Of a stretch of 64,000 nt of DNA, positions 38,490 to 56,428 are shown in pieces. Position numbers and translations under genes: made by a program. The stretch's first letter is position 1; every line of letters begins with the position of its first letter. The notes under the pieces were generated by a model. The model searched no databases and was not told where the DNA came from. It worked only from the letters and a program-made list of their open reading frames with translations. The stretch comes from Paludibacter sp. (GTDB lineage: Bacteria > Bacteroidota > Bacteroidia > Bacteroidales > Paludibacteraceae): contig NZ_WASO01000014.1 in NCBI RefSeq assembly GCF_009712605.1, positions 372,001 through 436,000 of the forward strand. Reading direction: 5' to 3'.

Positions 38490-41378
38490 TCATTTAAGTT
38501 CTATCATAAATTCAGTCAGGTTTTTCTCGGCACTAATATTCAGTTTTTTACGCAATCGATAACGTCCGGCTTCCACGCCTTTAAGCGAGATATTCATCAG
38601 GTTGGCAATATCTTTGGACGATAAATTCAGGCGCAGGTAGGCGCATAAGCGTAAGTCGTTGGATGTTAGCTCAGGATAACGGCTATGCAGATTCCGGAAG
38701 AAGTTCTCATGGATACGATCGAAATTAGATTGAAAAACGGCCCAATCATCTTCCGACGATAGATTCTCATCAATAATATGAACTATCTTATCGTAATACT
38801 TTTTCGGATACTGGCTTCCCAGATGCTCTTTCTGAAGAGTCAGTTCTTCTTTTATACGAACCAGAATATCGTTTTTCTTGATAATAGACATGGTGGATCC
38901 AGCCAGCTCTTTGCTCTTCAACATCACCTCGGTTTCCAATTTCTCCTTTTCCAGTTTCATGATTTGTTGCTCGCTTTTCTCTTTTTCCTGACGGCGGAGT
39001 TCTATGTGCTTTTGCTCGATTTTATCTCGTTTTTTTGCCTGCTCTTTTTTGATTAACAGATAAATAGCCCTTACAGCAACCACGAGTAACAGAAAATAAA
39101 TGATTTTGGCCCACACGCTCAGATAAAACGGAGGTAAGATTTCCAGATCGTATGCCAATCTGTCTATCACTTCGCCGGTAGAAGCAACAACTTCGGCTCT
39201 GAAACAATACTTTCCGTATGGCAGACGAACGTATTCCTGTACAACCGAATTTTTAAGATCCGTCCATTTTTTATCCCAACCATCTAATTTGTAACGGAAT
39301 CGAACATTTTCAATTTTGCCGTAATTGGGATACGCTATGGTAAACTGAAGACTATTGAATGCAAACGGCAAAGCTTCCGGTTCATTTAATGCAACTGATT
39401 GTACTGCCGAATTGTCAGCACGATAAGCCGTAACGCTTTTCAAACACAATTTGAAAGGGATTCCGCATTTGGACTGGTGTTCGTTAAGGTTGTAGAATGC
39501 GAGTCCGTTTTCAAGGCAAATCATGCACTGCGAATCCGAAAACGGGACAATGCACTGGTTTTTATCCACATTTTCATTAGGAAAAGAACTGTAATTTACC
39601 ACGTCCAATATTTTCACCTTTTCATTTTCCACCTGTACCAAAGCCGCCATATCGTCACGGATAAACCAATAGGTATTATCGCGGAAAGGCTCAATACGGT
39701 ACGAAGAAGCAAAACTACGCAAGCCAGCATTCAATGCCCGGAACGGGATGATTTCTTTGGTCAGGTCATTGAAGGTATAAAATCTGTCTCCATTTGTAAA
39801 AACCACTCTGTTAGCTACTTTGAATACATTAATTGAAGTGTGGGTTCTACCTCCGAGTGAGGTGTAATTCTTCATCTCCCGGATATGCCGTAAGTCACGA
39901 TCGAGCACAATGCGATACAAGCCTTCATGGAAATGGGCAGCCCAGATGGTTCCCTGATAATCGATCTCCAGATAACGGATCGGATTGATGAAGTTATCCA
40001 CTACATTGCTAAACACCCATTGTCCTCTGGCATCTTTCCGGTAGATACAAAGTTGCGTGTAAGTGCCCTGTACCAACACTTCCTGCCCGTTGATAACTCC
40101 CTGTTTAATGCAAACTCCACCATGCACCGGAGCTGCAATACTAATGCTATTGCCAGTCAAGCAATAAGTCTCTTCATTATTGCAACAAAAGAGCTGATTG
40201 CCAAAACGTTTCAAATCCCACACCTGACCTTTGATGCGGGGAACGAGCGAAACATTCACATTCTTATCGTCTTCACGCAAGCTGCCGATTTTCCCTGTAT
40301 AAAGCCCCTGATTGGTACCGATGTAAATATCCGGGCCATACTTATCAAGTCCGTAAATGGCTCCGATAGAAGGTTGAAACGATGTAACATATTTCACCCT
40401 GCTACCTGTACGTACAAACGCGATCCCCTTATCCAATGCCAGCCATATGTTATTGGCTCTATCGCAATACATTCCAAGAATCGTATTGTTTTGTAAAAAG
40501 TTGGTACTATTGAGTTTCCACAATATTTTGCCCGCTTTGTTGACCGCCACTACCCCATCCAGAATCGTACCGATAACAAATACCGAATCTTTGGTGACAA
40601 TCGCCCTGTTGGCATTGGCTTTGATCAGGAATTCATTAGCCTGGCTTTCAAACTTTTTACATCTACTTCCCTCCAGAATAAAAAGTCCGTCATGAGTTGT
40701 TACCAACAGTGTTTTTGTGGCATCGTAAGGCAATACCGCCGTTATTGACGACTTCGGCCGTTCTCCTTCTATTACAGGATGAAATTTGTTTTTCGCCGGA
40801 TCATAGCGGCAAAGACTACTCCCATCGACATGCGAATATATGTGATTACGATACTGATTGAAAAACAGGAAGGTACCTGACATATGATGGCCTGTTACCT
40901 GTTTGCCATCAAAAACAAAAAAAGAAGCAAACGATTGAAAATAGATTTTACCCTGACACGAGATAATTGTCCATATTTCATCATTTTGCATTTTGTAATT
41001 GCGAAGTTGTTGCGATAAGGAATGGTAACGCAATTCGCCTGTAGCAAGCGGCTGAAAATACCCAAACTCTTCAAACGAACCCACATAAATACGCCCGTCG
41101 GCAGCAGGCAATACGGAGCGAACCACACGATTGCCGGGCACCTGAAAAAGTTCCCAAGAGGCACCGTCGTAACGCAGTAAACCATTATTGTTGCCGAAAT
41201 AGAGAAACCCGTGAGCATCCTGTGCCACAGTCCAGTTCTGATTGGCCGCTTTGTACTCCTTTTTAGTAAAATTGGTGACTACCGGGGCAAATTCTGCACC
41301 GTCTGCGGAGAGCGGAAGAAAGATAAGACATAGAAAACAGAGTGCGGTGATTTGTTTGCACAATGGAATATAACGCAT
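38490..41378 (-). CDS. Membrane-spanning propeller / Y_Y_Y / LuxR-type HTH regulator
   Basis: 962 residues. Signal peptide 1-27; then a large periplasmic sensor of propeller-type repeats (YFGNNNGLLRYDG, GRIYVGSFEEFGYF, IYIGTNQGLY, TIWAAHFHEGLYRI); then a Y_Y_Y beta domain at about 680-750 (RFRYKLDGWDKKW, LPYGKYCFRAEV); one transmembrane helix near 757-777 (IIYFLLLVVAVRAIYLLI); a charged coiled coil; and a C-terminal LuxR-like helix-turn-helix (LTSNDLRLCAYLRLNLSSKDIANLMNIS). There is no histidine kinase or receiver domain, so it is not a hybrid two-component system; it should bind a glycan outside and DNA inside, in the manner of SusR. It probably controls the neighbouring glucan locus. Confidence 0.88.
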   Translation of the reverse strand: MRYIPLCKQITALCFLCLIFLPLSADGAEFAPVVTNFTKKEYKAANQNWTVAQDAHGFLYFGNNNGLLRYDGASWELFQVPGNRVVRSVLPAADGRIYVGSFEEFGYFQPLATGELRYHSLSQQLRNYKMQNDEIWTIISCQGKIYFQSFASFFVFDGKQVTGHHMSGTFLFFNQYRNHIYSHVDGSSLCRYDPAKNKFHPVIEGERPKSSITAVLPYDATKTLLVTTHDGLFILEGSRCKKFESQANEFLIKANANRAIVTKDSVFVIGTILDGVVAVNKAGKILWKLNSTNFLQNNTILGMYCDRANNIWLALDKGIAFVRTGSRVKYVTSFQPSIGAIYGLDKYGPDIYIGTNQGLYTGKIGSLREDDKNVNVSLVPRIKGQVWDLKRFGNQLFCCNNEETYCLTGNSISIAAPVHGGVCIKQGVINGQEVLVQGTYTQLCIYRKDARGQWVFSNVVDNFINPIRYLEIDYQGTIWAAHFHEGLYRIVLDRDLRHIREMKNYTSLGGRTHTSINVFKVANRVVFTNGDRFYTFNDLTKEIIPFRALNAGLRSFASSYRIEPFRDNTYWFIRDDMAALVQVENEKVKILDVVNYSSFPNENVDKNQCIVPFSDSQCMICLENGLAFYNLNEHQSKCGIPFKLCLKSVTAYRADNSAVQSVALNEPEALPFAFNSLQFTIAYPNYGKIENVRFRYKLDGWDKKWTDLKNSVVQEYVRLPYGKYCFRAEVVASTGEVIDRLAYDLEILPPFYLSVWAKIIYFLLLVVAVRAIYLLIKKEQAKKRDKIEQKHIELRRQEKEKSEQQIMKLEKEKLETEVMLKSKELAGSTMSIIKKNDILVRIKEELTLQKEHLGSQYPKKYYDKIVHIIDENLSSEDDWAVFQSNFDRIHENFFRNLHSRYPELTSNDLRLCAYLRLNLSSKDIANLMNISLKGVEAGRYRLRKKLNISAEKNLTEFMIELK

Positions 41379-41547: not shown

Positions 41548-41555
41548 TAACTTTG
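41548..41555 (+). promoter_or_regulatory. Putative -7 box (TAACTTTG) for the MFS transporter
   Basis: TAnnTTTG match 27 bases before the MFS ATG. The same octamer is used in the prfB and glucan-locus promoters; no clear -33 TTG here. Confidence 0.4.
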
Positions 41556-41581
41556 CAAACTCAGATTAAGAAGCAAAAAAG

Positions 41582-42757
41582 ATGTATAAAACATTATGGA
41601 ACAGGGACTTCATTTTGTTGACCCTGTCGAATTTCCTGCTGTGTATTACTTATTATTCGCTCATTTCCACCCTTCCGGTTTATTTAGCCGACAGTCTTCA
41701 TGCCGACAAAAGCGCCATAGGACTTGTGCTGGCTGCCTATACCATCGCTTCGGTAACGGTTCGTCCCGTGTCTGGCTTTGCTCTTGATAAATTCGGGAGA
41801 AAGATGATACTCGTTAGTGCATTAACGCTCTATTCAGCACTGTTTATCGGCTACATGTTTGCTCTTTCCATTGCATTGATCACGGTGCTTCGCTTCATGC
41901 AAGGGCTCGGTTGGGGAATTTCCACCATTTCCGGGTCAACCGTCGCCGTTGACATTATTCCCAATGAAAAAAGAGGCGAAGGTATCGGCTTTTATACGCT
42001 TTCTACTACCCTCGGCATGTCCGTAGGACCGGTAATCGGATTGTTGCTGGTACATCACGGAAGTTACCTGATTATGTTTGCCGGAATGCTTGTCATATCA
42101 ATTATCGCAATTGTTTGTGCCGGCATTGTCAAAATACCACAAAATATACCTCATGCGGCCAATATGAGCTTTAACCTGCACAATCTCTTTGAACCGAGAG
42201 CGGTATTACCTTCAATTAATTTATTGATTATCATGACTGCTTACGGAGGTTTATTATCGTTTGTGGCCCTTTACGGTAAGGAAATCGGGGTACAGGATAC
42301 CTCTCTGTTTTTTCTGGTTTTTGCTGCCGGAATAGCCATTTCGCGAATTACCGTTGGCAAGACGTTTGACAAAAGCGGACCTGCCGTTATTCTTACATTT
42401 TGCCTTCTGCTTGATATTCTCGGATTTGCAGTATTGGCATTACTAAAAAATCCGTTCGGATATTTCATATCGGCCATTCTGATCGGCTTTGGTAACGGAG
42501 TGGTTTTCCCGGTTTTTCAAACGATGGTAAATAATGTTGCCGAACCGGCTCACCGCGGAGCAGCTAACTCAACACTTTACACGGCGCTCGACCTCGGAAT
42601 GGGTGCCGGTATGATCCTGATAGGCTTCATATCCGAGCACACATCCTTGTCGCTTGCATTTCTTTGTTGCGCCGTAATTTGTTTTGTTGGCCTTGCTTTT
42701 TTCCGCTTCAGGGTATTGAGCGATTATCTGTCAAAAACACTACAAACCAAACATTAA
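41582..42757 (+). CDS. MFS transporter, 12-TM
   Basis: 391 residues with about twelve hydrophobic helices. The MFS A-motif is seen as GFALDKFGRKMI between helices 2 and 3, and GEGIGFYTLSTTLGMSVGPVIG is the motif C-like region. FMQGLGWGISTISG and a second loop GKTFDKSGP near residue 255 mark the duplicated half. Substrate unknown; this small DHA1-like branch contains efflux pumps and sugar exporters/importers. It is divergent from the propeller regulator and convergent with the glucan locus, overlapping its last gene's stop by four bases. It may move glucose or small glucans, but the position alone supports that. Confidence 0.85.
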   Translation: MYKTLWNRDFILLTLSNFLLCITYYSLISTLPVYLADSLHADKSAIGLVLAAYTIASVTVRPVSGFALDKFGRKMILVSALTLYSALFIGYMFALSIALITVLRFMQGLGWGISTISGSTVAVDIIPNEKRGEGIGFYTLSTTLGMSVGPVIGLLLVHHGSYLIMFAGMLVISIIAIVCAGIVKIPQNIPHAANMSFNLHNLFEPRAVLPSINLLIIMTAYGGLLSFVALYGKEIGVQDTSLFFLVFAAGIAISRITVGKTFDKSGPAVILTFCLLLDILGFAVLALLKNPFGYFISAILIGFGNGVVFPVFQTMVNNVAEPAHRGAANSTLYTALDLGMGAGMILIGFISEHTSLSLAFLCCAVICFVGLAFFRFRVLSDYLSKTLQTKH

Positions 42758-44406
42758 TACGTAAAGCCCAGCTTTGTTAAGCCTTGCTGAATATCACTAT
42801 TTTGCATGAAAAGGTGCCACAGTAACTGAGTACGATAATTTTCTATCATCACAACAATAGGTCCTTCGTCGATTGCCAGATATGAGTTTGAAAACCACGG
42901 AGTATTGAGCGAAAATGCATCATAAAAGCCGTAATTGCTCCAGAGTTTGTCGCCCAACATATAATAGAAAAAACGTGCTGCACGAAGGCTTTCGTTAGGC
43001 GTGTAAGGCATGGACGAAAGGGCTGCTGTTGGTGCAACCACACCCAGGTCATTGGTGGGCGAACTTGCCGAATATCCGTTTGGAATATCACTTGCCGTCA
43101 ATCCCCAAGAATCTGCGCTATAGCCGTAATAGCCTCCCGGATTACGAATGCAATACAAATTATTAATTTTGGCATGAGCCGTATTTTGCTGCCAGTAAGA
43201 GGCATATTGGTCTCTCAGGTTCCGCGGATCGAGCCCTAAAAAAGAGTACTGAGCAAAGAACAACGGGCCTCCGTAGTCGCTTCCCAGCGGTAAAGTCACC
43301 CCTTCGAATGTTTTACCGTTCACAATTCCGCCATTTTTAGCCCAACCGTTGGTATAAACCTCTTTAGTTATTGAATGAGTAGGAGACGAAGCTGCTAAAA
43401 CATATACTATCAAAGCCTCATTATAGCCTGCAATCGGCATATTCATGGCCCAACCGTAATCGGGCGACCAGTGCCAGTAAAGAACGTTCTGCCCGTTTTG
43501 GCGATACCAGTCCCATTCCACATTTTGCCACAGTTTCTGAATGGTATCGCACATGTTTTGTTCGCCCGGACTACCGTTTTTGAAATACTCCCGAACAGTC
43601 AACAATCCCTGCATCATAAACGCGGTTTCTACCAAGTCTCCCCCATCATCTTTCGTACTGAACGGAATTACCTTTCCGGTCGTTCCGTTCATCCAATGCG
43701 GAAACGCGCCATGGAATTTATCGGCCTGTGTATTGAGAAAATTAACCACTTTATTGATGCGGGAAAAACCATCGGAACGGGTAAGAAAACCTCTCTCGAT
43801 ACCCACCAGTATTGCCATTAATCCGAACCCGGAACCGCCGGTGGTCACAGTTTCACCCGAACCAAGCCGCTCACGTGCCATACCCGACACCGGATGAGCA
43901 TAATCGGTAAAATAACTCAAGGTTTTTTGCTGTATCAATGTCAACAAATCATTATCCGAAAGGGTTGGAAATTTTGCAGTACTATCAATGGCAGTCATGT
44001 ATTGAGACGAGAAACCGGTTACGATCTTGCCCCCAAGATTAACACCTGTATTTATTGAAAATGTAAACGAAGTCAATGGTGTTGCCGAAGCAGTCGATGT
44101 TAATACAATAGTCTGTTTATTATCACCTTGCGTAGCCTTATAATTTGAACCAATTGTACCTCCAAACGACAAGCCAGAGGTAACGATGGAACCGGGATCG
44201 ACTGTATTGTTGAATACAATCTTTGCAACCTGAACACCAGCTGCAACGCCATGGAAATTTCCGTTATTGGTTAGTGCTGTGCCGTTTACCTGCACACTAA
44301 CAACAGACAAAGAGGTAACATCCGGCACAACAGGTTCATTATTTTTGCCACATGATGCAACAATAATGATAATGGCTAATAAAAAGCTCAATTTTCTCAT
44401 ATTCAT
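42754..44406 (-). CDS. GH144 lipoprotein, probable endo-beta-1,2-glucanase (surface form)
   Basis: 550 residues. Start chosen at the ATG at 44406, which overlaps the upstream stop as ATGA (a second ATG at 44400 is equally near). The signal ends in a lipobox (IIIIVASC). Residues about 30-140 form an Ig-like SbsA/BIG-type domain (VQVNGTALTNNG...). The rest is the Glycoamylase (PF10091) domain = GH144: ARERLGSGETVTTGGSGFGLMA, DDGGDLVETAFMMQGLL, YWHWSPDYGWAMNMPIAGYNE, GGPLFFAQYSFLG, and LAIDEGPIVVMIENYRTQLLW. GH144 enzymes cut beta-1,2-glucans internally by an inverting mechanism. As a lipoprotein it likely acts at the cell surface, making pieces for SusC. The old name 'glucoamylase' is misleading. 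Confidence 0.88.
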   Translation of the reverse strand: MNMRKLSFLLAIIIIVASCGKNNEPVVPDVTSLSVVSVQVNGTALTNNGNFHGVAAGVQVAKIVFNNTVDPGSIVTSGLSFGGTIGSNYKATQGDNKQTIVLTSTASATPLTSFTFSINTGVNLGGKIVTGFSSQYMTAIDSTAKFPTLSDNDLLTLIQQKTLSYFTDYAHPVSGMARERLGSGETVTTGGSGFGLMAILVGIERGFLTRSDGFSRINKVVNFLNTQADKFHGAFPHWMNGTTGKVIPFSTKDDGGDLVETAFMMQGLLTVREYFKNGSPGEQNMCDTIQKLWQNVEWDWYRQNGQNVLYWHWSPDYGWAMNMPIAGYNEALIVYVLAASSPTHSITKEVYTNGWAKNGGIVNGKTFEGVTLPLGSDYGGPLFFAQYSFLGLDPRNLRDQYASYWQQNTAHAKINNLYCIRNPGGYYGYSADSWGLTASDIPNGYSASSPTNDLGVVAPTAALSSMPYTPNESLRAARFFYYMLGDKLWSNYGFYDAFSLNTPWFSNSYLAIDEGPIVVMIENYRTQLLWHLFMQNSDIQQGLTKLGFTY

Positions 44407-46499
44407 TGGCATTTAACCGGTTTTGACAACGGTGATACCCCACTCTCGCCTAACGCTTCAATTGCGCACCAATAGGTTGTATTTTTATCCAGGCCTCTCA
44501 TGTCGTAAGACGTTGCATCATAAACTGTAATGCAATTGTAAAGCTTGTCGGGAGCTGTTCCGAAACGAATATTGTAACCGTATGCTTCGGCTACAGCTTG
44601 CCACGTTATCGCTGCATTACGGGCATCTTTCTTGTCTCTTACAACTACAAATTTACTGACTCCGGCAGGTGTTTGTCCTTCCGATTTGCCGAATACCCGG
44701 AAATCCATCAACGCAAAATTGCCGCTTGCCGAATGGACGTTTTCAATTTTCAGGTAACGTGTTGTCAAGGGCTGCTTTAGCTCCGCATAGTCATGAGGAA
44801 CGTCAAGATCATTATTGCTTTTGTCCACAACCAATTGCCAATCCTTACCATCAAGCGATGCATAGATTTTGTACTGATGATACACATCCATTGCTTTACC
44901 ACATTGGTTTGCTTTGTGTTCATAATAATTCACCTGAATGGCATTAACCTGTTTTTCAGCGCCTAAATCCATAGCAAACCACTCTCCTGGGTTGCCGGTG
45001 GCGGCAGCCCAATACGTCCGCATGTTCTCATCAGCTGCGTTTTCGGGCAGGTAAATACTGTCCGAAGACGATGCCCACACCTTTTTGTGCAACGAAAGCA
45101 ACATCCAACCGGTAAAGTTGCCTTTCGCATGATCTTCGGAAGCAAGTGGAATCGTGGTCGGATAATCGCCGAACGCCGTATTGGCAAATAAAGTACCTTC
45201 CTTATCGAAACCTGCCGGATAGAGTCCGATACGACGTTCAAAAGTTTCTCTAAGTGATAACATGCAGGTAGCTATGTGCCAGTAGTTTCCGTAATTATCT
45301 TTGAAAGTGCCACCGTGCCCGGCTCCCAACACAAAACCTCCGGGCTTGTATGAAAACGGATTGTGCTGCTGGTACACGAATGGCCCTAATGGTTTATCCG
45401 ACACATAAACACCATCGGCATACACTTTGAATTCGGTACCGGGAGCTCCATACTGAAGATAATATTTCCCATCGTGTTTTGTCATAAACGAACCTTCAAC
45501 AAAGGGTTTCAACGTTAGAGAATCGTCATTGTTCATTCCGAAACGCTCCCATCCGTGAAGCTCGGGATGCAACAGTATCAAATCGTGAATGACACTTTTG
45601 GGACGAAATGATGCACGATCGTATTCAACACCTTTCGTTGGGAATTCGTTGCTCGAACCGTAATAAAGATACAGCCGACCATCATCGTCGAGAAAAAGAT
45701 CAGGATCCCAGTGAGGCAAAAGAGCCGTTTCTGCCAGATGCTTCCACCGGCCGTCGTCAGGATGAGTGGTGTACCAAACCGGCAAATCTTTGTACGTAGA
45801 ACCAAGCATAATCAATGTATCACCAAAGACCTCCACCGCGGGAGCGCACTGATCATCGTCATTGGGTTTGCATTGAAAACCGGCAAAGATATATTTCCAT
45901 TTTGTCAAATCATCCGAAATGTAATAACCTGACTGGTTGGTTGAAAAAAGATAATATTTTCCTTTGTACGGCACAATCATCGGATCGGCGGTAGATCGGC
46001 ACGAAATGCCTTTATTGTTGCTGTGATTGAAATATTCGAAGTTATAGTCGATATTTACCGGGTTGCAATACGTTTTCGGACGATCGTTATTCGGGTCGAA
46101 CCAAAGAGTTGCCTGTGATTGCTGACGCGTGATAGAATGATTTTGGTTATCAGGCAACATGCGAACGGTGATCGTTTTGGTAGTCGGTGAGATGGGAGCC
46201 TCTGTAAATTTCATTCCCGGAAAATAGCAAATCAGCGCCTTGTCATCCGGGCTGACCATCATTGTGAAACGGCCTTGGGCATCACTGGAAGCGGAAACTA
46301 CCCCGTGTTTAACCATAATCTGTGCTCCGGACAATGGAGCGCCTGTGCTGTCTGTCACTACACCTTTTATTTGATATGTCTTGACAACGGGTATTTTATA
46401 CTCGGTTATCTGCCCTTTGACTGTTTTGGTTTGAGCTTCTGAGTGCATTCCCCAAATTGCAACAATACCAATGAATATGAAAAGTTTCAAACACTTCAT
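44403..46499 (-). CDS. GH43-family glycosidase with N-terminal CarboxypepD_reg, discoidin and FN3 domains
   Basis: 698 residues. Signal peptide (LFIFIGIVAIWGMHSEA before QT); a carboxypeptidase-regulatory-like domain at about 42-115; a five-bladed GH43 domain at about 140-450; an F5/8 type C (discoidin, CBM32-like) domain at about 470-605; and a C-terminal FN3 domain. All three GH43 catalytic acids appear present: D172 (general base, STADPM), D265 (HWDPDLFLDDDG) and E335 (general acid, FVEGSF). GH43 enzymes usually remove arabinofuranosyl, xylosyl or galactosyl units. In a glucan locus its substrate is unexpected: perhaps a side-group on the polymer. Stop codon overlaps the next gene start. 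Confidence 0.82.
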   Translation of the reverse strand: MKCLKLFIFIGIVAIWGMHSEAQTKTVKGQITEYKIPVVKTYQIKGVVTDSTGAPLSGAQIMVKHGVVSASSDAQGRFTMMVSPDDKALICYFPGMKFTEAPISPTTKTITVRMLPDNQNHSITRQQSQATLWFDPNNDRPKTYCNPVNIDYNFEYFNHSNNKGISCRSTADPMIVPYKGKYYLFSTNQSGYYISDDLTKWKYIFAGFQCKPNDDDQCAPAVEVFGDTLIMLGSTYKDLPVWYTTHPDDGRWKHLAETALLPHWDPDLFLDDDGRLYLYYGSSNEFPTKGVEYDRASFRPKSVIHDLILLHPELHGWERFGMNNDDSLTLKPFVEGSFMTKHDGKYYLQYGAPGTEFKVYADGVYVSDKPLGPFVYQQHNPFSYKPGGFVLGAGHGGTFKDNYGNYWHIATCMLSLRETFERRIGLYPAGFDKEGTLFANTAFGDYPTTIPLASEDHAKGNFTGWMLLSLHKKVWASSSDSIYLPENAADENMRTYWAAATGNPGEWFAMDLGAEKQVNAIQVNYYEHKANQCGKAMDVYHQYKIYASLDGKDWQLVVDKSNNDLDVPHDYAELKQPLTTRYLKIENVHSASGNFALMDFRVFGKSEGQTPAGVSKFVVVRDKKDARNAAITWQAVAEAYGYNIRFGTAPDKLYNCITVYDATSYDMRGLDKNTTYWCAIEALGESGVSPLSKPVKCQ

Positions 46500-46638
46500 T
46501 TTTTAGGTTTTTAATGCCGGATAGCCGTTAAATTGCTACCGGGTATTACGAAAATTGTCAAAATCATATTGAAGAAACAAGAAATGGGTACAAACTTTAT
46601 GTACCCATTTCTCATTCTAAAACCATATTAATCAAAAA

Positions 46639-47748
46639 CTACAAACCATATTTTTCCAAACCTGCAAGAGCCTGTAGTTCTAACACACTTAATGCTTTAT
46701 TGTAGATTCTTACCTGATCCAATTTGCCCGTTAAGTAGCTTGCCCAACCTTGAGGACCGCCTGCTGTACCCAAACTTGGTGTACACTGAAATTGTTCAGT
46801 TCCAAAAATGATGTTTGTCGCTGTTGCTGGAAATACCAAATTACCCAAACCAGAGGCAATAGTAGTAGCAACAGAGACTCCATTCTGATACAGAGTAAAT
46901 GTCGAAGTTGCGGCATCGTAGGTTAATTCAATAGGCACCCAGGTATCCCATGGATTCGTAATCCATCCATTAGTAAACCAAGCCTCGCTTTGAGCATTAA
47001 CGTGTACCTTTAAGTTGGCGGTGGTGGCTGTTCTTCCTCCATTTTCATAGAACATTTCAAATGCTCCCCAGAACTGATCAGAACGTGAAAAACATATTGG
47101 GGTAATCAATCCATTGTTTGTATTGCTGGTATACAACCAGAATGAGATCGTGAAACTCTGTAGATTTTTCACAGCGGTAGTCATATTGGAAATCATATAT
47201 CCGTTAGCACCACCTTGCATCGCTTTGCCTTTCACTCCGGGCACAAAAGTTGTGTTTACTCCCGTACCAACAGTATTGGAAACGCTATCAATATAACTAT
47301 TTTCAAATGCCCAATAGCCAACAAGATTTGAGGGTGCTACCTGAGAAGATTTTGTGAAACCATTAATTGCTATAGGAACATAAATCGACATTTCAGACCC
47401 ATAGGTTGTGCCGATTGCATTAGTAGCATAAGCTCTATAATAGTACGTTTTACCCATTTTAGCTTTATCCAGTACAGCAGAAAAAGGACCTCCAAATGTA
47501 TGAGCAACAACAGTTTTGTTTTTAGCTATTGTAACATTCGAGATAGTATCGTAGCAAATGCCGGCTTCAGTAATAATAGAGCCTCCATCCGTTGGAATAT
47601 TTCCTCCGGCACTCACCTGTCCGGCAGTTATTGTTGCAGCTACGGTAGTTATAGATGGCATATTAAGTTCTCTATTGTTCGTTGTAGTACAACTTGTTGC
47701 CAATATAAAACCAGCCGCAATGAAACATATAAATAATAGATTTTTCAT
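46639..47748 (-). CDS. LamG-domain surface lipoprotein (probable glycan-binding protein)
   Basis: 369 residues; lipobox ends at C20 (GFILATSC). Residues about 30-130 are an FN3-like or BACON-like beta domain (ITTVAATITAGQVSAGGNI ... GKTYYYRAYATNAIGTTYGSEM); residues about 145-360 are a LamG/concanavalin-like jelly roll (LVGYWAFENSYIDS, SFTISFWLYTS, IELTYDAATSTFTLYQNG, GKLDQVRIYNKAL). It stands directly after susD, the place where SusE/SusF-type glycan-binding lipoproteins are encoded, so a binding role at the surface is likely. No catalytic residues seen. Confidence 0.85.
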   Translation of the reverse strand: MKNLLFICFIAAGFILATSCTTTNNRELNMPSITTVAATITAGQVSAGGNIPTDGGSIITEAGICYDTISNVTIAKNKTVVAHTFGGPFSAVLDKAKMGKTYYYRAYATNAIGTTYGSEMSIYVPIAINGFTKSSQVAPSNLVGYWAFENSYIDSVSNTVGTGVNTTFVPGVKGKAMQGGANGYMISNMTTAVKNLQSFTISFWLYTSNTNNGLITPICFSRSDQFWGAFEMFYENGGRTATTANLKVHVNAQSEAWFTNGWITNPWDTWVPIELTYDAATSTFTLYQNGVSVATTIASGLGNLVFPATATNIIFGTEQFQCTPSLGTAGGPQGWASYLTGKLDQVRIYNKALSVLELQALAGLEKYGL

Positions 47749-47830
47749 GTTGTTACATTATAAAATTAAGGTTTGTTTCATGGCCGTCAACCTTCGTGAT
47801 AATAAGAGTTGACGGCAATAAAAACAGCAT

Positions 47831-49354
47831 TTATTTAAGATTCTGGTCAAGGTCGATCTGCGTCTGTGGAATTGGAATATAATCACTTGTTCCTGACGTA
47901 AATCCAAATGCAGAGAGTGCCGTAGCAGCTTGTCCGGTGCGAAGCAAATCGTTATAACGTTCGCCCCACCATTCGCAGGCAAATTCAGCACGACGTTCAT
48001 CCAAAACGTTTTGCAACGTAGCATTTGTAATGGATGCCAGCTTTGCACGATTTCTTACCAAATTCAATGGCACATCTCCATTTTGTCCTTTACGAATTTT
48101 AGCTTCCGCATTCAACAACAGAGCATCGGCATAACGCAAAACTCTTACATTGTTGTTGGAACCATAATCGGTTCTTCCTGCATTCATTTGTGAACTTGGC
48201 AGATATGCCTTCCCGTTGAAATACTTCAGACCATCGGAATTTCCCCATATCTTGTCACCGCTTGGAGTCATAACGTACGAGTTTCCATCAGCGCCACAGG
48301 ACATGATGGTAGTTTTACTACGAATGCTATCTTGGCGGGTATTAAAGAAATCAACAATTGCCTGTGATGGTGTCATAAATCCCCAACCTGATATTGCACT
48401 ACCTCTCTGATCTCCGCGAGGACCCTGGAATGCCCAGAAAGCTCCGGGTTCAACATTGGTTCCTGATCCGGTTCCGAAATCGCTGAATTGCAGTTCAAAG
48501 AGCGATTCGTTGCATAATTTACCCGGCTTCTTGAATAATTGGTAGAAATCGGAATACAAGGAAAATTTTGAGCTATTGATAATCTGATTGGTACAATCCA
48601 GCACAATATCCCAGTTTGCATTGGCATTATCGCTGCCTGCAAGGTCTGCAGCGGCTTTGGCCTTCAGCAATAAAGCGGAATACTTGGTAACAGCACCAAC
48701 ATGAGCAGATTGATTAGGACGTGCATCCTCCAGATTGGCAATACAAAAATCCATTTCACTCATAATGAACTTGCGAACATCGGCAAACGAACTCTTACCA
48801 ATGCCCGACAAGGTAGAGTTATCCGTCAAGATGGGCACATTCCCAAAAATTCTTGAAATAGTCAAATGGGCAAACGCACGAATAAACCGAACTTCAGCCT
48901 GATATTGATTGTACAATTTTAGGTTCGTTGCATCGCTAGTCGAAATATTTGCTGCAAATTTTGCCAATTCGGCCAATGCATTATTGGTATAGATAACAAG
49001 CCCATAATAGTCATTCCAACAATTGTTTGTACCCCAGAATGTCTGTACGGATGCATAGGAATTGTGGAAATATTTAATATCGGTTAGTGTAGACTGATCG
49101 CTGGCCGACGAGCCTTTATCCAAATCATCGCCTCTCACGCCGCGAATACCGAAGTCCATCCAGTGCACCAGCCCGGGATTTTCTCCACATGCCGTTCTGT
49201 AAACGCCAGAAACCGGTTCGTACATATTCGACAGGTTGGTGTAGTCTATGTTCATGTTATTATACTTGTTCTCGGGCAGTTTATCCAGATAATTGGAACA
49301 GCTACTTGCAATTACTCCCACCAGAAGTAAAAAAAGATATATTAATCGTTTCAT
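47831..49354 (-). CDS. SusD/RagB family outer-membrane lipoprotein
   Basis: 507 residues; lipobox ends at C19 (VIASSC). The N-terminal part (SNYLDKLPENKYNNMNI) and the TPR-like helices (VRFIRAFAHLTISRIFGNVPI, ADALLLNAEAKIRK) are typical of SusD, as is the C-terminal LDERRAEFACEWWGERYNDLLRTG signature. It caps the SusC barrel and delivers oligosaccharide; the pair forms a pedal-bin transporter. It follows susC by 21 bases. Confidence 0.95.
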   Translation of the reverse strand: MKRLIYLFLLLVGVIASSCSNYLDKLPENKYNNMNIDYTNLSNMYEPVSGVYRTACGENPGLVHWMDFGIRGVRGDDLDKGSSASDQSTLTDIKYFHNSYASVQTFWGTNNCWNDYYGLVIYTNNALAELAKFAANISTSDATNLKLYNQYQAEVRFIRAFAHLTISRIFGNVPILTDNSTLSGIGKSSFADVRKFIMSEMDFCIANLEDARPNQSAHVGAVTKYSALLLKAKAAADLAGSDNANANWDIVLDCTNQIINSSKFSLYSDFYQLFKKPGKLCNESLFELQFSDFGTGSGTNVEPGAFWAFQGPRGDQRGSAISGWGFMTPSQAIVDFFNTRQDSIRSKTTIMSCGADGNSYVMTPSGDKIWGNSDGLKYFNGKAYLPSSQMNAGRTDYGSNNNVRVLRYADALLLNAEAKIRKGQNGDVPLNLVRNRAKLASITNATLQNVLDERRAEFACEWWGERYNDLLRTGQAATALSAFGFTSGTSDYIPIPQTQIDLDQNLK

Positions 49355-49375
49355 AATAATTTAGATTTTAATGGT

Positions 49376-52300
49376 TTAGAAAATAAGTCTCCATCCAATA
49401 CTATAAGTAGCTGATGCAGGATAAACCTGATTATCATAACCTAAATTTCTCAGATCATTAATTGCTCCGGTAATTTCGGGTGTAAATCCGCTATATTTTG
49501 TGAATATTAAAGGTCTGTCAGCCGTAAGTGACAAACGCATTTGCGGAGCTCCCTGTTGGTTCGAAAGCTTGAAGGTATAGGCCAGTTGGATATTCTGAAT
49601 ACGCAGATATGATCCGTTTTCAACAAAGAATGAACTGGCGGCATTGTTCCATGCCTTGGTAGTTCCGTATGCCGAAGGATAACTGTTGGTAGAACCATCG
49701 CCCGACCATAAATTAGTCACCAATTTGGCATCGCCATTCATATCGCTGTACCAAAGACGACGAGCACGGTTCATGTTCAGAATTTTATTTCCGGCCTGTC
49801 CCTGTAGCATCACATTCACCTCAAAGTTCTTGTAGTTACATCCTAAATTGGCACCATAAGTCACTTTAGGCAGATAATTACCAAGATTTACACGATCACT
49901 CGCATCAAGCACTCCGTCGCCATTCTGGTCTTTGTATTTGAAATCACCGGGAGTCAGACCATTTGCTTTAGCAATTGGATCAGCATCAATTTGAGATTGA
50001 TTTTGGTATACACCAATCACCTGGTATCCGTAGAAATAATTGATAGGCTTTCCGACTTCCATGCGGGTAGGAAATTCAGCAACACCGGTCATCATGTATG
50101 CCAATCCGCCTAAATCCTGCACACTATTTTTAACAGTAGTAAGGTTAGCACCAATATGATAGCCGAAATTACCAATCTTATCTGCCCAGTTCAACGTTAC
50201 TTCAACCCCCTGATTCAACACTTTACCCCAGTTACCATACACTTGTTTGTTGGTCATCGGCAATTGTTTGTTGAATGCCAGATTGTCGGTAACACGGTGA
50301 TAATAATCCAAAGTTCCTGTTAATCTCTGACCCAAAGTTGAAAAATCGATTCCGGCATCCAACTCTTTTACCACTTCCCATTTCATATATTTGCTGAAAA
50401 TGGCATCAATAATATATCCAGGAACATATGCACCATCGGCAGTTGCAGTACTTCCATAAACACCGTTATTGGTAGTTGTTGTAGCGAAGTTAATATTGTT
50501 GGGAACTCCATCATTTCCGAGCATACCCCAGCTTACACGGGCTTTCAGATAATCCAGAAAATGTTGTTGTTTCATAAAGCTCTCTTCGGAAATAATCCAG
50601 CCTGCACCTACTGACGGAAAATATCCCCAATGCTGCTGGAACTTAGAGCTTCCGTCGGCTCGGAAAGTTGCCGAAAGCAGATATTTGGAAGCATAATCGT
50701 AAGTTGCCCGGCCAAACCATGAAAAACCATGAAAATCAGAGCCGTTATCTGTAACTGTAGCACTTGTAGCAGCGGCTTGGCTCAATGCGAGATAGAGGTA
50801 TTCTTCCTGCGGACCCGGTACATCAGGAGCAGTTCCTTTGAGTTGTCTCCAACGTTCATCTCTGATAGATTGTCCCACCATTGCAGTAATATGGTGTTGA
50901 TTGAAAGCCTCCTTGTAAGTCAACAGGTTATCTACAATATAATTATTCCAGTTGTCCTTTGTTTCGGCAAGCAAGGAGAGCTTACTATCCGATGATTTCT
51001 GATAATTATCAACGAAATAGGCAGGTGTATAATTCAATTCAAGATTCGATGTGTATTTTTCGCTCAGTTGTGTTTTGAAAGTCAATTTGTCTTTAATCAG
51101 CGAAACTTCAGCATACACTGTAGGCATTACCTGCCAGCTGGTAGTTTTGTCGTAATAATAGTTGGCAGCAGCAACCGCATTCGAAAATGCACCATTGGCA
51201 AAGCCAATGCTTGTTGAAGAAGCATAAGCGGTGGGAGTTGCTGTGGTGTTAGCCGGATCATATACCGGAAATAAAGGTGATGAATAATAAGCATACGAGA
51301 ATGCAGCATTATTAGGCGAGAACAACGTAGAATTCGATAAAATTACCTTATACCCTACTTTCAACCAGTTATAAGCCTGAAAATCGGTCTGAGCTAAAAT
51401 ATTGAAGCGCTTGTAGTTGTTCTTTGAAATCATAACTCCATCCTGATCCAAATAACTCATTCCGACATTATAGGTAGCCTTTTCACTGCCCCCGGCTATG
51501 CTAACATTATGACTATGTGTCAGAGCTGATTTTTTCAAGATTTCATTATACCAGTCTGTATTAGTTGTTGGATTAGTACCACTACCTCCAAATTTTTGTG
51601 CAGACAATGTAACATGCGCCAGATCGGAAGAAGTTTGTTTGGCTATTTCCATAGCAGCATACTCGCTTCCGTTTGCCATTTTCAGCATATGAACCGGCGT
51701 TTGTAATCCCACATATCCGTCATAAGTGATTTTGGTAGGTGTATTCAGTTTTCCTTTTTTGGTCGTGATCAATACCACACCGTTTGCGGCCTTAACACCA
51801 TAAATGGCTGCTGCTGAGGCATCTTTCAAGATAGACATATCTTCAATATCGTTGCTACTCAAAAAGTCGATATTGTCAAAGAACATGCCGTCAACAACAT
51901 ACAACGGACCTTCATTGTTCAGAGAACCGACACCACGGATACGAACCGTAGGAGACGATCCCGGAGAGCCTACAGTTACTACCTGCACACCGGCTGCACT
52001 ACCCTGCAACGCATTCATGGGCGAAGAGGTAGTCCGCTTTATCAAATCCTCTGATTTTACAACCGCAATTGGGGCTGTCAGGTCTTTTGCTTTACTTGTA
52101 CCGTAACCTATTACTACTACTTCGTTCAGTTTTTGGGATGCTGATTTCAAATTAATAGTATAACTTCCACCTTTTACAATAACTTCCTGAGATTCATACC
52201 CAATATATGAGAGAACTAATGTTTTCCCTTGTGCAACCGACAAGGAAAATTTCCCATCAATATCGGTAATGGTGCCCGAAGTAGTGCCTTTAACAACAAC

Positions 52301-52426
52301 ACTAACTCCAATTAGTGCTTCCTTTGTATCGGCATCTTTCACAATTCCAGACACATTGGTCTGTGCCATCAGATACGTGGTAAACGATCCGAATAGCATC
52401 AAAAAGAGATAAATCTTCTTTTTCAT
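49376..52426 (-). CDS. SusC/RagA family TonB-linked outer-membrane protein
   Basis: 1016 residues. Signal peptide ending before QTNVSG; CarboxypepD_reg-like domain (GIVKDADTKEALIGVSVVVKG ... VLSYIGYESQEV) at about 25-95; plug with VVIGYGTSKAKDL, GVQVVTVGSPGSSPTVRIRGVGSL and LYVVDGMFFDNI; then the barrel of about 22 strands ending PASATYSIGWRLIF. It lacks the extended N-terminal signalling domain of receptors that work with an anti-sigma factor, which agrees with control by the membrane regulator nearby. It imports glycan fragments with SusD. Confidence 0.96.
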   Translation of the reverse strand: MKKKIYLFLMLFGSFTTYLMAQTNVSGIVKDADTKEALIGVSVVVKGTTSGTITDIDGKFSLSVAQGKTLVLSYIGYESQEVIVKGGSYTINLKSASQKLNEVVVIGYGTSKAKDLTAPIAVVKSEDLIKRTTSSPMNALQGSAAGVQVVTVGSPGSSPTVRIRGVGSLNNEGPLYVVDGMFFDNIDFLSSNDIEDMSILKDASAAAIYGVKAANGVVLITTKKGKLNTPTKITYDGYVGLQTPVHMLKMANGSEYAAMEIAKQTSSDLAHVTLSAQKFGGSGTNPTTNTDWYNEILKKSALTHSHNVSIAGGSEKATYNVGMSYLDQDGVMISKNNYKRFNILAQTDFQAYNWLKVGYKVILSNSTLFSPNNAAFSYAYYSSPLFPVYDPANTTATPTAYASSTSIGFANGAFSNAVAAANYYYDKTTSWQVMPTVYAEVSLIKDKLTFKTQLSEKYTSNLELNYTPAYFVDNYQKSSDSKLSLLAETKDNWNNYIVDNLLTYKEAFNQHHITAMVGQSIRDERWRQLKGTAPDVPGPQEEYLYLALSQAAATSATVTDNGSDFHGFSWFGRATYDYASKYLLSATFRADGSSKFQQHWGYFPSVGAGWIISEESFMKQQHFLDYLKARVSWGMLGNDGVPNNINFATTTTNNGVYGSTATADGAYVPGYIIDAIFSKYMKWEVVKELDAGIDFSTLGQRLTGTLDYYHRVTDNLAFNKQLPMTNKQVYGNWGKVLNQGVEVTLNWADKIGNFGYHIGANLTTVKNSVQDLGGLAYMMTGVAEFPTRMEVGKPINYFYGYQVIGVYQNQSQIDADPIAKANGLTPGDFKYKDQNGDGVLDASDRVNLGNYLPKVTYGANLGCNYKNFEVNVMLQGQAGNKILNMNRARRLWYSDMNGDAKLVTNLWSGDGSTNSYPSAYGTTKAWNNAASSFFVENGSYLRIQNIQLAYTFKLSNQQGAPQMRLSLTADRPLIFTKYSGFTPEITGAINDLRNLGYDNQVYPASATYSIGWRLIF

Positions 52427-52497
52427 AGGTTTGATTTTGTGTTAATTAATACATAAATATCTATCTTCTTAACTTATGACATCTCAGTATCAATCCT

Positions 52498-54060
52498 TCA
52501 TTTGTACTGAAATCCCAATTTCATTAGTCCGTTACCAATCTCTTCATTTTGCATAAAGAGAGTCCAGAGTAAGCCGCTTCTGTAGTTCTCTATCATCACA
52601 GCAATCGGTCCCTGATCGATTGCCAGATAAGAACGAACTACCTGTTGGCCTGTTACCATGTTCAGGTTAAAAGCATCATAAAATCCATATTTGCCTAATA
52701 ATTGGTTACCTAAATCGTAATAGAAATGACGGAATACAGGCAGCACTTCCTGTGGAGCATAAGGCAAGGACGAAAGCGCTGCTGTTGGCGAAACAGTGCC
52801 ATTTTCATCAGGTGTGCCCGGATGATGCGAAGTATACCCAACCAACGGATCGTCAGAAGAAGTAAATCCCCAACTATCGGCTTCGTAGCCTTTGTATTTC
52901 TTCGGGTTTGCTAATGCATAAGCACGGTGAATCAAAACATGATTTCTGTTTCGTTCCCAGATATTGGCATCCTGATTGTATAGCCCTTTGGGATTAAGTC
53001 CAAGGAAAGAGTAATGGGTAAAAAACAATGGGCCTCCGTATTCCATGCCCAACGACAGCGGTATTCCAAAATAGCTTTTGCCATTTTGATAATATGGCGA
53101 GGTTCTCCAGCAATTAAACACTTCGGAACGAATCGGGTGTGAAGGTGAAGATGCAGCCAATACATACGTAATCAGGGTTTCATCGAAGCCCTTGATCCGA
53201 TGACGCATTTTGAAGCCATAATTTTTTGACCAGTGCCAGTAAAGCGAGTCTGTGCCGTCCGTATACCAATTCCAGTCTATTTCTTCCCACAGTTTTGTGA
53301 TACGCGACGATAGTGCTTTTTCCTGATCATTTCCGTTTTTGAAATATTGACGTGCAGTAAGCAAGCCCTGTGTTAGGAAGGCTGTCTCGACGAGATCTCC
53401 TCCATCGTCATACTGGCTAAAATTGAACACCTTACCTGTGTTGCCATTGTACCAGTGCGCCCAAGCTCCATGAAAACGATCGACTCTTTCGAGGAAAGAA
53501 ACAATCTGATCGATTTTATTTAGGGCTTGTTCCCGTGGAAAATAATTACGCTGAGCGCCTGCCACCAATGCCATAATCCCGAAACCGGTACCACCTGTCG
53601 TCACTATATCTCCATGATTATCATTGCTTCGCTCACGCGCTAATCCGCAATCCGGATGAGCCAGATCGAAGAAATAGCGAGTGGTATAGCGTTGTACCAT
53701 ATCAATCAGCTGGTCATCAGTAAATTTATGGGTCGTTGCCTTGCATTGGAACTTTGCAGCAGCTTTGTCCATCAAGTTCATTCCTTTGGGAACAATTCTG
53801 TACACCAAATTTCTTTCTCCGACAGATTTACCCAGAAAATCGAGGTAAAATCCAGCGTTAGTTTCTGCCCGTTTCTGAAAATGAGACCCATTATCCGTCG
53901 AAAGATAAATTTCGTAAGTAAAACCGGGCAGATTGGCATACGTTATTTCAACGTGCGCATCATAACCTGTAGCCTGCAGCGATTCCGGAACAACATATTG
54001 CTGAGCAGATAACAACGGCATACAGGCAGTTGCTAATAAAAGAATTAATAACCGAATCAT
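52498..54060 (-). CDS. GH144 family glycosidase, probable endo-beta-1,2-glucanase (periplasmic form)
   Basis: 520 residues with a plain Sec signal (ILLLATACMPLLSA before QQ), no lipobox. An N-terminal beta domain (about 25-95, HVEITYANLPGFTYEIYLSTDNG) precedes the Glycoamylase/GH144 domain: CGLARERSNDN, TTGGTGFGIMALVAG, YDDGGDLVETAFLTQGLL, YWHWSKNYGFKMRHRIKGFDE, GGPLFFTHYSFLG and DQGPIAVMIENYRSGLLW. These match the second copy in the locus segment for segment, including the acidic residues, so both should be active. Lack of lipidation suggests it trims imported fragments in the periplasm. It is 12 bases downstream of the GH3 gene. Confidence 0.88.
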   Translation of the reverse strand: MIRLLILLLATACMPLLSAQQYVVPESLQATGYDAHVEITYANLPGFTYEIYLSTDNGSHFQKRAETNAGFYLDFLGKSVGERNLVYRIVPKGMNLMDKAAAKFQCKATTHKFTDDQLIDMVQRYTTRYFFDLAHPDCGLARERSNDNHGDIVTTGGTGFGIMALVAGAQRNYFPREQALNKIDQIVSFLERVDRFHGAWAHWYNGNTGKVFNFSQYDDGGDLVETAFLTQGLLTARQYFKNGNDQEKALSSRITKLWEEIDWNWYTDGTDSLYWHWSKNYGFKMRHRIKGFDETLITYVLAASSPSHPIRSEVFNCWRTSPYYQNGKSYFGIPLSLGMEYGGPLFFTHYSFLGLNPKGLYNQDANIWERNRNHVLIHRAYALANPKKYKGYEADSWGFTSSDDPLVGYTSHHPGTPDENGTVSPTAALSSLPYAPQEVLPVFRHFYYDLGNQLLGKYGFYDAFNLNMVTGQQVVRSYLAIDQGPIAVMIENYRSGLLWTLFMQNEEIGNGLMKLGFQYK

Positions 54061-54072
54061 AGCAATAAGCTT

Positions 54073-56361
54073 TTACTGTTCAAGTGTAAACATCGTTTTC
54101 TTTACATCTCTGGAGTTTCCGCCTACATACACCTCAAATTCTCCGGGTTCCGTGCCAAAAGTCATATCTGCACGATAGAAGGCTAGCATTTCCGGTTTTA
54201 TGGTAAAATTGACGGTTTTGGTTTCTCCTGCTTTCAGGAAGATCTTTTCAAAACCTTTCAGCTCTTTTACCGGCCGTGTAACGCTGCCTGCTAAATCGTG
54301 CAAATACATTTGAACTACTTCTGCACCGTCTTTTTTGCCTGTATTTGTAACCTGACAGCTAACGGTGATGCTGCCATTTGCGTGTAATTTTGATGATGAA
54401 AGCACCGGAGTGGAATAATCGAACGTAGTGTAACTAAGTCCGTATCCAAAAGGATAGAGTGGCGAATTGGGAACATCCAAATAAACAGAACGGAATTTTT
54501 CAAATTGGTCTTCTTCATGTTCCGGTCTGCCGGTCGGTTTATGTGCGTAATAAATAGGAATTTGACCCACATTGCGTGGAAATGTGGCAGTCAGTTTTCC
54601 GCTCGGATTAACGTCTCCGAACAAGACATCAGAAATGGCATCGGCGGCCATTGTTCCTCCAAACCAAACATTCAGTATGGCCGGAATATTTTCATTTTCC
54701 CAACCCAATGTGAGCGGGCGTCCGGTAAACAGCACCAATACAACCGGCTTACCCGTTTGAGCCAAAGCTTTGAGAAGCTCTTTCTGTGTGTCCGGAATAG
54801 AAATATCAGACCGGCTTGCACACTCGCCGCTCATTTCAGACGATTCACCTATAGCTGCCACTACAACATCGGCTTGTGAAGCTACTTTCAGCGCTTCATC
54901 CAAAATTTCTTTAACCGGGCGGCTATCACGATTCGTTGTTTTGCCAAACACGCTGACTCTTTTTTCCATTTCTTCGTCGGCAAAAATATTGGATCCTCGT
55001 GCATACACGATTTTAGCTTTATCACCTACTGCCGCCTTCATTGTTTCATAAAGGGTTGCAGGCTTGGAAAAATCGGCAGCGACAGACCATGTGCCGCACA
55101 TATTTTCTCTGTTATTGCCCAACGGACCGATTAAAGCAATAGTTCCGTTCTTCTTTAAAGGCAATAAATTGGCCTGATTCTTTAGCAAGACGAAGCTTTC
55201 TGCGGCTGTTTTGCGGGCAAAATCCAAATTAGTCGGCGTGAAAATCTCCGTTTTAGCACGATTTTCATTACAATATTTATAGGGATCTTCAAACAGTCCC
55301 AGCTTTAATTTTGCTATCAATACTGATTTACACGCGTCGTCAATCTCTTTTTGTGTTATTTTTCCTTCACGAAGTGATTGTTTCAATGTTTTCAGGAAGC
55401 CTTCACTTACCATATCCATGTCAACTCCGGCCTTCAAAGCCAAAGCAGATACCGCCTGCAAATCTCCCATTCCATGAGCTGTCATTTCGGAAATACCTGT
55501 ATAATCTGTAACTACAAAACCTTTAAAGCCCCATTGTTTGCGCAACACGTCTGTCAGTAACCATTTGTTGCCTGTAGCGGGAATCCCGTCAATTTCGTTG
55601 AAAGAAACCATTACAGATCCGCAACCGGCATCAATAGCGGCTTTGTAAGGAGGTAAATAATCTTCGTACATTCTGCGTTTGCTCATATCCACCGTGTTGT
55701 AATCGCGTCCGGCTTCGGCTGCACCATACAACGCATAATGTTTTACGCATGCCATTATGTTATTGTTATGAGAGAGATCTCCCTGATATCCATTTACCAT
55801 TGCTTTTGCAATCAAAGAGCCGAGATAGGGATCTTCTCCGGAACCTTCGGCAATACGTCCCCAGCGAGGATCACGGGCAATATCCACCATTGGAGAAAAA
55901 GTCCAGCATATACCATCTGCACTGGCTTCAATTGCTGCAATGCGTGCCGTTTTTTCTATCATCGGCAGGTTCCATGTGCAGGATAATGCGAGAGGAATAG
56001 GAAATGTGGTTTCGTAACCGTGGATAACATCCATCCCGAAAATAAGAGGAATATGCAAACGGCTTTGTTCTACGGCTACTTTTTGCATAGCTTTAATCTT
56101 AGCAACCGATTTGATGTTGAACAATCCGCCAACTAATCCTTGTTTAACTTTACCACCAATATCAGAATTTTGTGCCTGACCTGTTACAAAATCCCCGGCT
56201 CCCGGCAAATTGAGTTGTCCTATCTTTTCGTCCAGCGTCATTAGTTTCATAATTGAATCTGCTCGATGTTCAATTCTTGAAACAGTTCTGGCTGGTGTAT
56301 TTTTAAAAGAGGAGAATAAGACAAATAAGAAGAGTAAAAGAAGAGAAGTAGCTTTTTTCAT
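54073..56361 (-). CDS. GH3 family beta-glucosidase (BglX-type, probably acts on beta-1,2-glucooligosaccharides)
   Basis: 762 residues from the ATG at 56361 (a TTG at 56400 lies under the promoter and is rejected). Signal peptide, then the GH3 barrel with DPRWGRIAEGSGEDPYLGS, KHYALYGAAEAGRDYN, and the nucleophile D286 in GFVVTDYTG; the alpha/beta sandwich with AIGESSEMSGECASRSD, which carries the acid/base glutamate; and a C-terminal FN3-like domain (VSCQVTNTGKKDGAEVVQMYLHD). Retaining enzyme that removes terminal glucose. Bacteroidota loci for beta-1,2-glucan carry a GH3 of this kind together with GH144. First gene of the locus, right behind its promoter. Confidence 0.9.
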   Translation of the reverse strand: MKKATSLLLLFLFVLFSSFKNTPARTVSRIEHRADSIMKLMTLDEKIGQLNLPGAGDFVTGQAQNSDIGGKVKQGLVGGLFNIKSVAKIKAMQKVAVEQSRLHIPLIFGMDVIHGYETTFPIPLALSCTWNLPMIEKTARIAAIEASADGICWTFSPMVDIARDPRWGRIAEGSGEDPYLGSLIAKAMVNGYQGDLSHNNNIMACVKHYALYGAAEAGRDYNTVDMSKRRMYEDYLPPYKAAIDAGCGSVMVSFNEIDGIPATGNKWLLTDVLRKQWGFKGFVVTDYTGISEMTAHGMGDLQAVSALALKAGVDMDMVSEGFLKTLKQSLREGKITQKEIDDACKSVLIAKLKLGLFEDPYKYCNENRAKTEIFTPTNLDFARKTAAESFVLLKNQANLLPLKKNGTIALIGPLGNNRENMCGTWSVAADFSKPATLYETMKAAVGDKAKIVYARGSNIFADEEMEKRVSVFGKTTNRDSRPVKEILDEALKVASQADVVVAAIGESSEMSGECASRSDISIPDTQKELLKALAQTGKPVVLVLFTGRPLTLGWENENIPAILNVWFGGTMAADAISDVLFGDVNPSGKLTATFPRNVGQIPIYYAHKPTGRPEHEEDQFEKFRSVYLDVPNSPLYPFGYGLSYTTFDYSTPVLSSSKLHANGSITVSCQVTNTGKKDGAEVVQMYLHDLAGSVTRPVKELKGFEKIFLKAGETKTVNFTIKPEMLAFYRADMTFGTEPGEFEVYVGGNSRDVKKTMFTLEQ

Positions 56362-56397
56362 ATAGATGATTTTAGGGTAATTTTTACAAATACAATG

Positions 56398-56428
56398 CAA
56401 AGTTATTGCGCCAAAATTGAGTTGTCAA
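56398..56428 (-). promoter_or_regulatory. Promoter of the glucan utilization operon
   Basis: On the minus strand TTG (56428-56426) is followed after exactly 20 bases by TAACTTTG (56405-56398). This is a full Bacteroidota consensus promoter; transcription would start near 56391, about 30 bases before the GH3 ATG. Confidence 0.75.

What the first reader, a model, noticed from the sequence alone, without database searches (positions are those of the whole stretch)
42754..56428. Seven-gene locus for a beta-1,2-glucan with two GH144 enzymes at different cell sites
Seen: two GH144 genes (52498-54060 and 42754-44406) with matching motifs, one with a plain signal peptide and one with a lipobox, in one operon with GH3, SusC, SusD and a LamG lipoprotein. 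Known: GH144 enzymes cleave beta-1,2-glucan, and GH3 enzymes act on the oligosaccharides. Inference: a surface enzyme, import by SusC/D, and a periplasmic enzyme split the work. Two GH144 copies separated by site in one locus is less usual than one.
Basis: partly seen in the sequence, partly recalled or inferred. Interest (0 to 1): 0.6.

Follow-up and report, generated by a model that had tools for sequence, protein, structure and literature searches.

The report
Ordinary beta-1,2-glucan uptake locus, variable importer
This is a common type of bacterial gene cluster for eating beta-1,2-glucan, and having two GH144 enzymes in it is normal rather than unusual; the more notable point is that a sister species carries the same enzymes but completely different sugar-import proteins in the middle of the operon.

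Summary
In detail: seven same-strand genes lie at 42754-56361 with one Bacteroidetes-type promoter. Both GH144 proteins match solved beta-1,2-glucanases and keep all seven checked CpSGL residues. A regulator (38490-41378) and an MFS gene (41582-42757) adjoin. The claim that two copies are less usual is wrong: 52 of 80 Bacteroidota genomes with GH144 have two or more within 20 kb, and a two-GH144, two-site model is already published. The two copies belong to separate clades, one of signal-peptide-I proteins and one of lipoproteins, so the division of labour is conserved; surface display of the window's lipoprotein remains inference. Extra findings: (i) a congeneric genome keeps the enzymes at about 90% DNA identity but has an unrelated SusC-SusD-LamG block (46436-52412), as in the published B. 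thetaiotaomicron fructan case; (ii) the GH43 gene recurs with GH144 across the phylum with its catalytic triad intact, yet I found no function for it. Verdict: new member of a known kind, modest interest.

The parts
54073..56361 (-). GH3 beta-glucosidase, predicted secreted; first gene of the operon
   Evidence: PF00933/PF01915/Fn3-like; PDB matches include 5xxl-5xxo 'periplasmic beta-glucosidase' at about 1069 bits and 3u48 at 1156 bits
52498..54060 (-). GH144a: signal peptide I, FN3-like domain, GH144 catalytic domain; likely periplasmic
   Evidence: CpSGL D135, D139, E142, E211, F268, Y330, D400 equivalents all conserved (alignment, residues)
49376..52426 (-). SusC-like TonB-dependent transporter
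   Evidence: TIGR04056, 835 bits
47831..49354 (-). SusD-like lipoprotein
   Evidence: PF07980 and PF14322
46639..47748 (-). LamG (Laminin_G_3) lipoprotein, probable surface glycan-binding protein
   Evidence: PF13385; lipobox ATSC
44403..46499 (-). GH43 with N-terminal CarboxypepD_reg, F5/8 type C and an FN3-like C-terminus; function unassigned
   Evidence: (D172, D265, E335 invariant in 30 sequences)
42754..44412 (-). GH144b: lipoprotein with about 110-residue N-terminal region before the catalytic domain; likely outer-membrane, possibly surface
   Evidence: catalytic residues conserved (alignment)
41582..42757 (+). MFS transporter, convergent with the operon; role unproven
   Evidence: PF07690; seen next to the locus only in the congeneric G002 and G005
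38490..41378 (-). One-component regulator: Reg_prop propeller, Y_Y_Y, C-terminal HTH
   Evidence: PF07494/PF07495; C-terminus matches the EsrB DNA-binding domain, E 0.005; homologues flank GH144 loci in relatives
56398..56428 (-). Promoter-like TTGACAACTCAATTTTGGCGCAATAACTTTG (-33/-7 Bacteroidetes type)
   Evidence: conserved in G005
46436..52412 (-). Exchangeable block (SusC, SusD, LamG) that is non-homologous at DNA level in the congeneric genome G005 (G002 carries the G005 type)

Best explanation
A polysaccharide utilization locus for beta-1,2-glucan (linear or opened cyclic). The regulator senses oligosaccharide and turns on one operon. The lipoprotein GH144b cuts the polymer at the outer membrane, the LamG protein and SusD hold the fragments, SusC imports them, the secreted GH144a shortens them in the periplasm, and GH3 releases glucose. 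The GH43 enzyme, catalytically intact by its residues, acts on a feature of the natural glycan that is not yet known. The import trio is the changeable part and can be replaced as a block while enzymes and regulator stay. Shown: gene content, conserved catalytic residues, conserved locus, block exchange. Inferred: substrate, locations, regulation, order of steps, the GH43 role.
For: Family matches; seven mutagenised or clan-defining CpSGL residues conserved in both GH144 proteins (against residues); predicted GH144a structure matches beta-1,2-glucanases best (pLDDT 90); locus composition recurs across Bacteroidota; same-family locus G040 adds SOGP, GH35 and a sugar transporter; two GH144 clades with constant signal type; conserved promoter; block exchange against 90% identical flanks, with SusC and SusD data rejecting the grouping that both GH144 genes support.
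Against: No activity, expression or localisation data. Another GH144-containing PUL includes a beta-1,2-galactosidase that does not cut beta-1,2-glucooligosaccharides (PMC11739564), so GH144 context alone does not prove the substrate. GH43 is not expected for an undecorated glucan. The GH144b surface signal is weak. GH144a is closest over full length to the exo-acting BDI_3064 (5z06), so endo versus exo is open.
Confidence: 0.82

Rival explanations
1. The locus targets a different or heteropolymeric 1,2-linked glycan (for example one with pentose or galactose decoration), with GH43 acting on the side groups and GH144 on a glucan or galactan backbone.
For: GH43 is linked to GH144 in 54 of 80 homologous loci and in 34 of 38 with the long form; a GH144-containing PUL in B. 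xylanisolvens carries a beta-1,2-galactosidase; marine GH144 PULs carry a sulfatase (PMC6499787).
Against: All tested beta-1,2-glucanase residues are conserved, the GH3 relatives are beta-glucosidases, and SOGP occurs in a related locus. No other side-chain enzymes in the window locus.
Confidence: 0.2
2. Both GH144 proteins face the periplasm (GH144b anchored to the inner leaflet of the outer membrane); there is no surface cut and SusCD imports intact cyclic or short glucan.
For: GKNNEP after the GH144b cysteine lacks the K-(D/E)2 or S-D-D pattern shown to drive surface export (PMC5080379).
Against: Orthologues in the same part of the tree carry CKVEEP, CKTDDP and CKEEE, and SusD, a surface protein by family, has equally weak charge after its cysteine (CSNYLDK).
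Confidence: 0.25
3. The SusC-SusD-LamG difference between window and sister species is an assembly or binning artefact.
For: Some relatives are fragmented assemblies.
Against: Break points fall at gene starts, ORFs on both sides are intact, G005 is in 4 contigs and G002 independently shows the same alternative block at 98-100% protein identity; neither genome holds the other's SusD elsewhere.
Confidence: 0.03

Closest known systems
GH144/GH3 beta-1,2-glucan PULs of Bacteroidetes (PMC6499787; B. thetaiotaomicron SGL cluster with its GH3 beta-glucosidase; fosmid PULs in PMC6550366)
   Same: SusC/SusD with GH144, with GH3 in PMC6550366; reported among the abundant PUL kinds in PMC6499787
   Different: Here two GH144 proteins of two signal types plus a GH43; the papers' full gene lists were not available to compare
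Ignavibacterium album IALB_1177-1187 cluster (PMC8861115)
   Same: Two GH144 proteins with a proposed outside/periplasm split and TonB-dependent uptake
   Different: ABC transporter, GH94 SOGP-like and GH35 genes; no SusD or GH43 is described there
B. thetaiotaomicron Bt-8736 versus VPI-5482 fructan PUL (PMC5967196)
   Same: Same locus with strongly diverged SusC/SusD between close relatives (49% and 39% identity there; 35% and 30% here)
   Different: There the Bt-8736 pair was shown to confer inulin use; here a glucan locus, the block includes the LamG protein, effect untested
CpSGL (5GZH) and BDI_3064 (5Z06) GH144 enzymes
   Same: Fold, catalytic residues, 51% and 38% identity to GH144a
   Different: BDI_3064 has a further N-terminal region that GH144a lacks; endo or exo mode untested here

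Membership tests
GH144 (both proteins) | Family-level sequence match (PF10091) and match to characterised members | tested here: met
   247 and 234 bits, cut-off 27; E 1e-150 and 1e-135 to CpSGL
GH144 (both proteins) | Catalytic and clan residues equivalent to CpSGL D135, D139, E142, E211, F268, Y330, D400 | tested here: met
   Read by counting along the alignments against residues named
GH144 (both proteins) | (alpha/alpha)6 fold of beta-1,2-glucanases | tested here: met
   GH144a model pLDDT 90; top hits 5z06, 4gl3, 5gzk. GH144b was not folded
GH144 (both proteins) | Hydrolysis of beta-1,2-glucan | not testable with these tools
   Needs an enzyme assay
Bacteroidota PUL (Sus-like) | Adjacent SusC and SusD with CAZymes | tested here: met
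Bacteroidota PUL (Sus-like) | Linked regulator | tested here: met
   Reg_prop/Y_Y_Y protein at 38490-41378, homologues at GH144 loci of relatives
GH43 | Five-bladed propeller with Asp, Asp, Glu triad | tested here: met
   PF04616 E 3e-19; D172, D265, E335 invariant; Z 27 to 4qqs
GH43 | Subfamily with known activity | tested here: inconclusive
   Best solved relatives only about 18-26% identical
Surface lipoprotein with a known export signal (LES), for GH144b | K-(D/E)2 or S-D-D type signal after the cysteine | tested here: not met
   CGKNNEP; consensus from PMC5080379, which was defined in other genera

The most novel reading that the evidence does not exclude
The GH43 protein that travels with GH144 across Bacteroidota is an undescribed enzyme of beta-1,2-glucan metabolism, so natural beta-1,2-glucans carry a sugar decoration (or linkage) not yet recognised, and block exchange of SusC-SusD-LamG retunes which form of the glucan each species imports.
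Probability: 0.25. Interest if true: 0.55.

Novelty: new member of a known kind. Interest (0 to 1): 0.28.

Why it matters
As given, the finding adds one more example of a common locus and corrects the idea that two GH144 genes are special. What could matter is the conserved, uncharacterised GH43 partner, which gives a specific candidate for a missing step in beta-1,2-glucan breakdown, and a clean natural pair of sister species that share enzymes and regulator but differ in the importer, which would let one test what SusC, SusD and the binding protein contribute to substrate choice.

Tried and rejected
Two GH144 copies as a recent duplication: rejected, the clades are old and separate. Whole-locus horizontal transfer between window and G005: not needed, identity stays near 90% through the locus ends into the neighbouring genes. 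Donor of the alternative block: searched 150 relatives, best outside the genus about 43% identity, none found. Direction of the exchange: allele A is also in congeneric G004 and G007, which favours replacement in the G002/G005 lineage, but the SusC tree puts the window with another genus, so left open. GC content shows no trace. GH43 subfamily assignment by PDB sequence and fold: no close characterised relative. The Abe 2017 paper on CpSGL is not held, so residues were taken from a later paper. A first literature search for SusC cassette exchange gave nothing useful.

Full report
What is there. The window lies in a Bacteroidota genome (3.7 Mb, 15 contigs); the closest named GH43 relative found is a Paludibacter MAG at 69%. 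Seven - strand genes run from 56361 to 42754 with gaps of -10 to 139 bp: GH3, GH144a, SusC, SusD, LamG lipoprotein, GH43, GH144b. A TTG-N20-TAACTTTG promoter begins at 56428 and is conserved in a sister species.

GH144 membership. Both proteins score far above the PF10091 cut-off and match CpSGL, other solved GH144 proteins and BDI_3064. By counting along the printed alignments, the equivalents of CpSGL D135, D139, E142, E211, F268, Y330 and D400, named in PMC12102758, are conserved in both. The GH144a model (pLDDT 90) best matches BDI_3064 over its full length, FN3-like domain included (TM 0.87), and the CpSGL catalytic domain at 51% identity. Whether it is endo or exo is open.

Is two unusual? 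No. In 101 relatives, 21 have PF10091, and nearly all of these have exactly two. In 247 genomes across the phylum, 80 have strong hits; 52 of the 80 have at least two, and in all 52 two of them lie within 20 kb. PMC6499787 lists GH144 PULs among the abundant kinds, and PMC8861115 already proposes an outside GH144 and a periplasmic GH144 in one cluster.

Two clades. A tree of 36 proteins places the window's GH144a in a clade of eight whose N-termini look like signal peptide I, and GH144b in a clade of nine lipoproteins; both have SH-aLRT 100. One clade-A member (G007) was flagged as lipobox-like by a loose pattern, but its FLTFC context is not a plausible lipobox. The window's own GH144a has a cysteine (ATAC) after only 12 residues, also judged not to be a lipobox, by eye. 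The division by signal type is therefore conserved across related loci. Surface display of GH144b is inference: its CGKNNEP lacks the export pattern of PMC5080379, while relatives have better matches.

GH43. It has CarboxypepD_reg, GH43, F5/8C and an FN3-like end. Catalytic D172, D265 and E335 are invariant in 30 relatives, and the fold is a GH43 propeller (Z 27), but solved relatives are only about 18-26% identical. Of 80 homologous loci, 54 carry GH144 in the stretch fetched (up to 10 kb each side), and 34 of 38 among those with the long form (short contigs included, so these are lower bounds). I found no paper assigning it a function; the search with GH144, GH43, GH3 and SusD gave four papers, of which I opened two at their GH144 passages.

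Substrate. Locus G040 of the same family combines GH144b, GH3, GH43 and related SusCD with SOGP, GH35 and a sugar transporter; SOGP acts on beta-1,2-glucooligosaccharides (PMC8861115). This supports beta-1,2-glucan. The caution is PMC11739564, where a GH144-linked GH35 is a beta-1,2-galactosidase and does not cut beta-1,2-glucooligosaccharides.

Block exchange. Congeneric G005 shows 90.3% DNA identity over 37378-46435 and 90.2% over 52413-57735, but no blastn match over 46436-52412. Proteins: GH3 97%, GH144b 95%, GH144a 93%, GH43 91%, against SusC 35%, SusD 30%, LamG 28%. The ends of similarity fall at the GH43 signal-peptide junction and within the first codons of susC. G002 carries the G005 type. 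Neither SusD type occurs at high identity elsewhere in the other genome. SusC and SusD data reject a window+G005+G002 clade (AU 3e-83 and 2e-6), a clade that both GH144 genes support at 100. G008 and G040, of another genus, also differ (GH43 85%, SusC 38%, SusD 30%), though their gene order differs too. The precedent is the B. thetaiotaomicron fructan PUL, where SusC/SusD at 49% and 39% identity changed substrate use (PMC5967196); allelic ragAB in P. gingivalis is another (abstracts). The mechanism, probably homologous recombination in flanking genes, is inferred; the direction is unresolved.

Verdict. Ordinary locus, correctly seen, with one wrong claim of rarity; two side findings deserve follow-up.

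Noticed in passing
window 46436-52412; L042 (G005:C4:463500-483400), L062 and L063 (G002): SusC-SusD-LamG block replaced between congeneric species while enzymes, regulator and promoter stay at about 90% DNA identity.
   Followed up: yes
window 44403-46499: GH43 fused to a CarboxypepD_reg domain, conserved next to GH144 across Bacteroidota, no known activity found; shorter forms without that domain occur in Chitinophaga, Mucilaginibacter, Rufibacter and Hymenobacter.
   Followed up: partly
L045, L046 (G040:C37), L050, L052: Related loci carry a third, divergent GH144 (about 30% identical); in G040 it stands with SOGP, GH35 and MFS_2 genes, and similar-looking genes occur in L050 and L052.
   Followed up: partly
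L043 (G007) 8866-12258: In a congeneric genome the place between SusD and GH43 holds a NAGLU-type alpha-N-acetylglucosaminidase and a protein with a weak DUF5009 match instead of LamG.
   Followed up: partly
L066 (Paludibacter sp. STB_57): One locus seems to hold two SusD types, one related to the window's (71%) and one to that of G031 (77%), side by side with GH144 genes.
   Followed up: no
window 41582-42757: MFS gene overlaps the end of GH144b by 4 bases, convergent; retained beside the locus in sister species.
   Followed up: no
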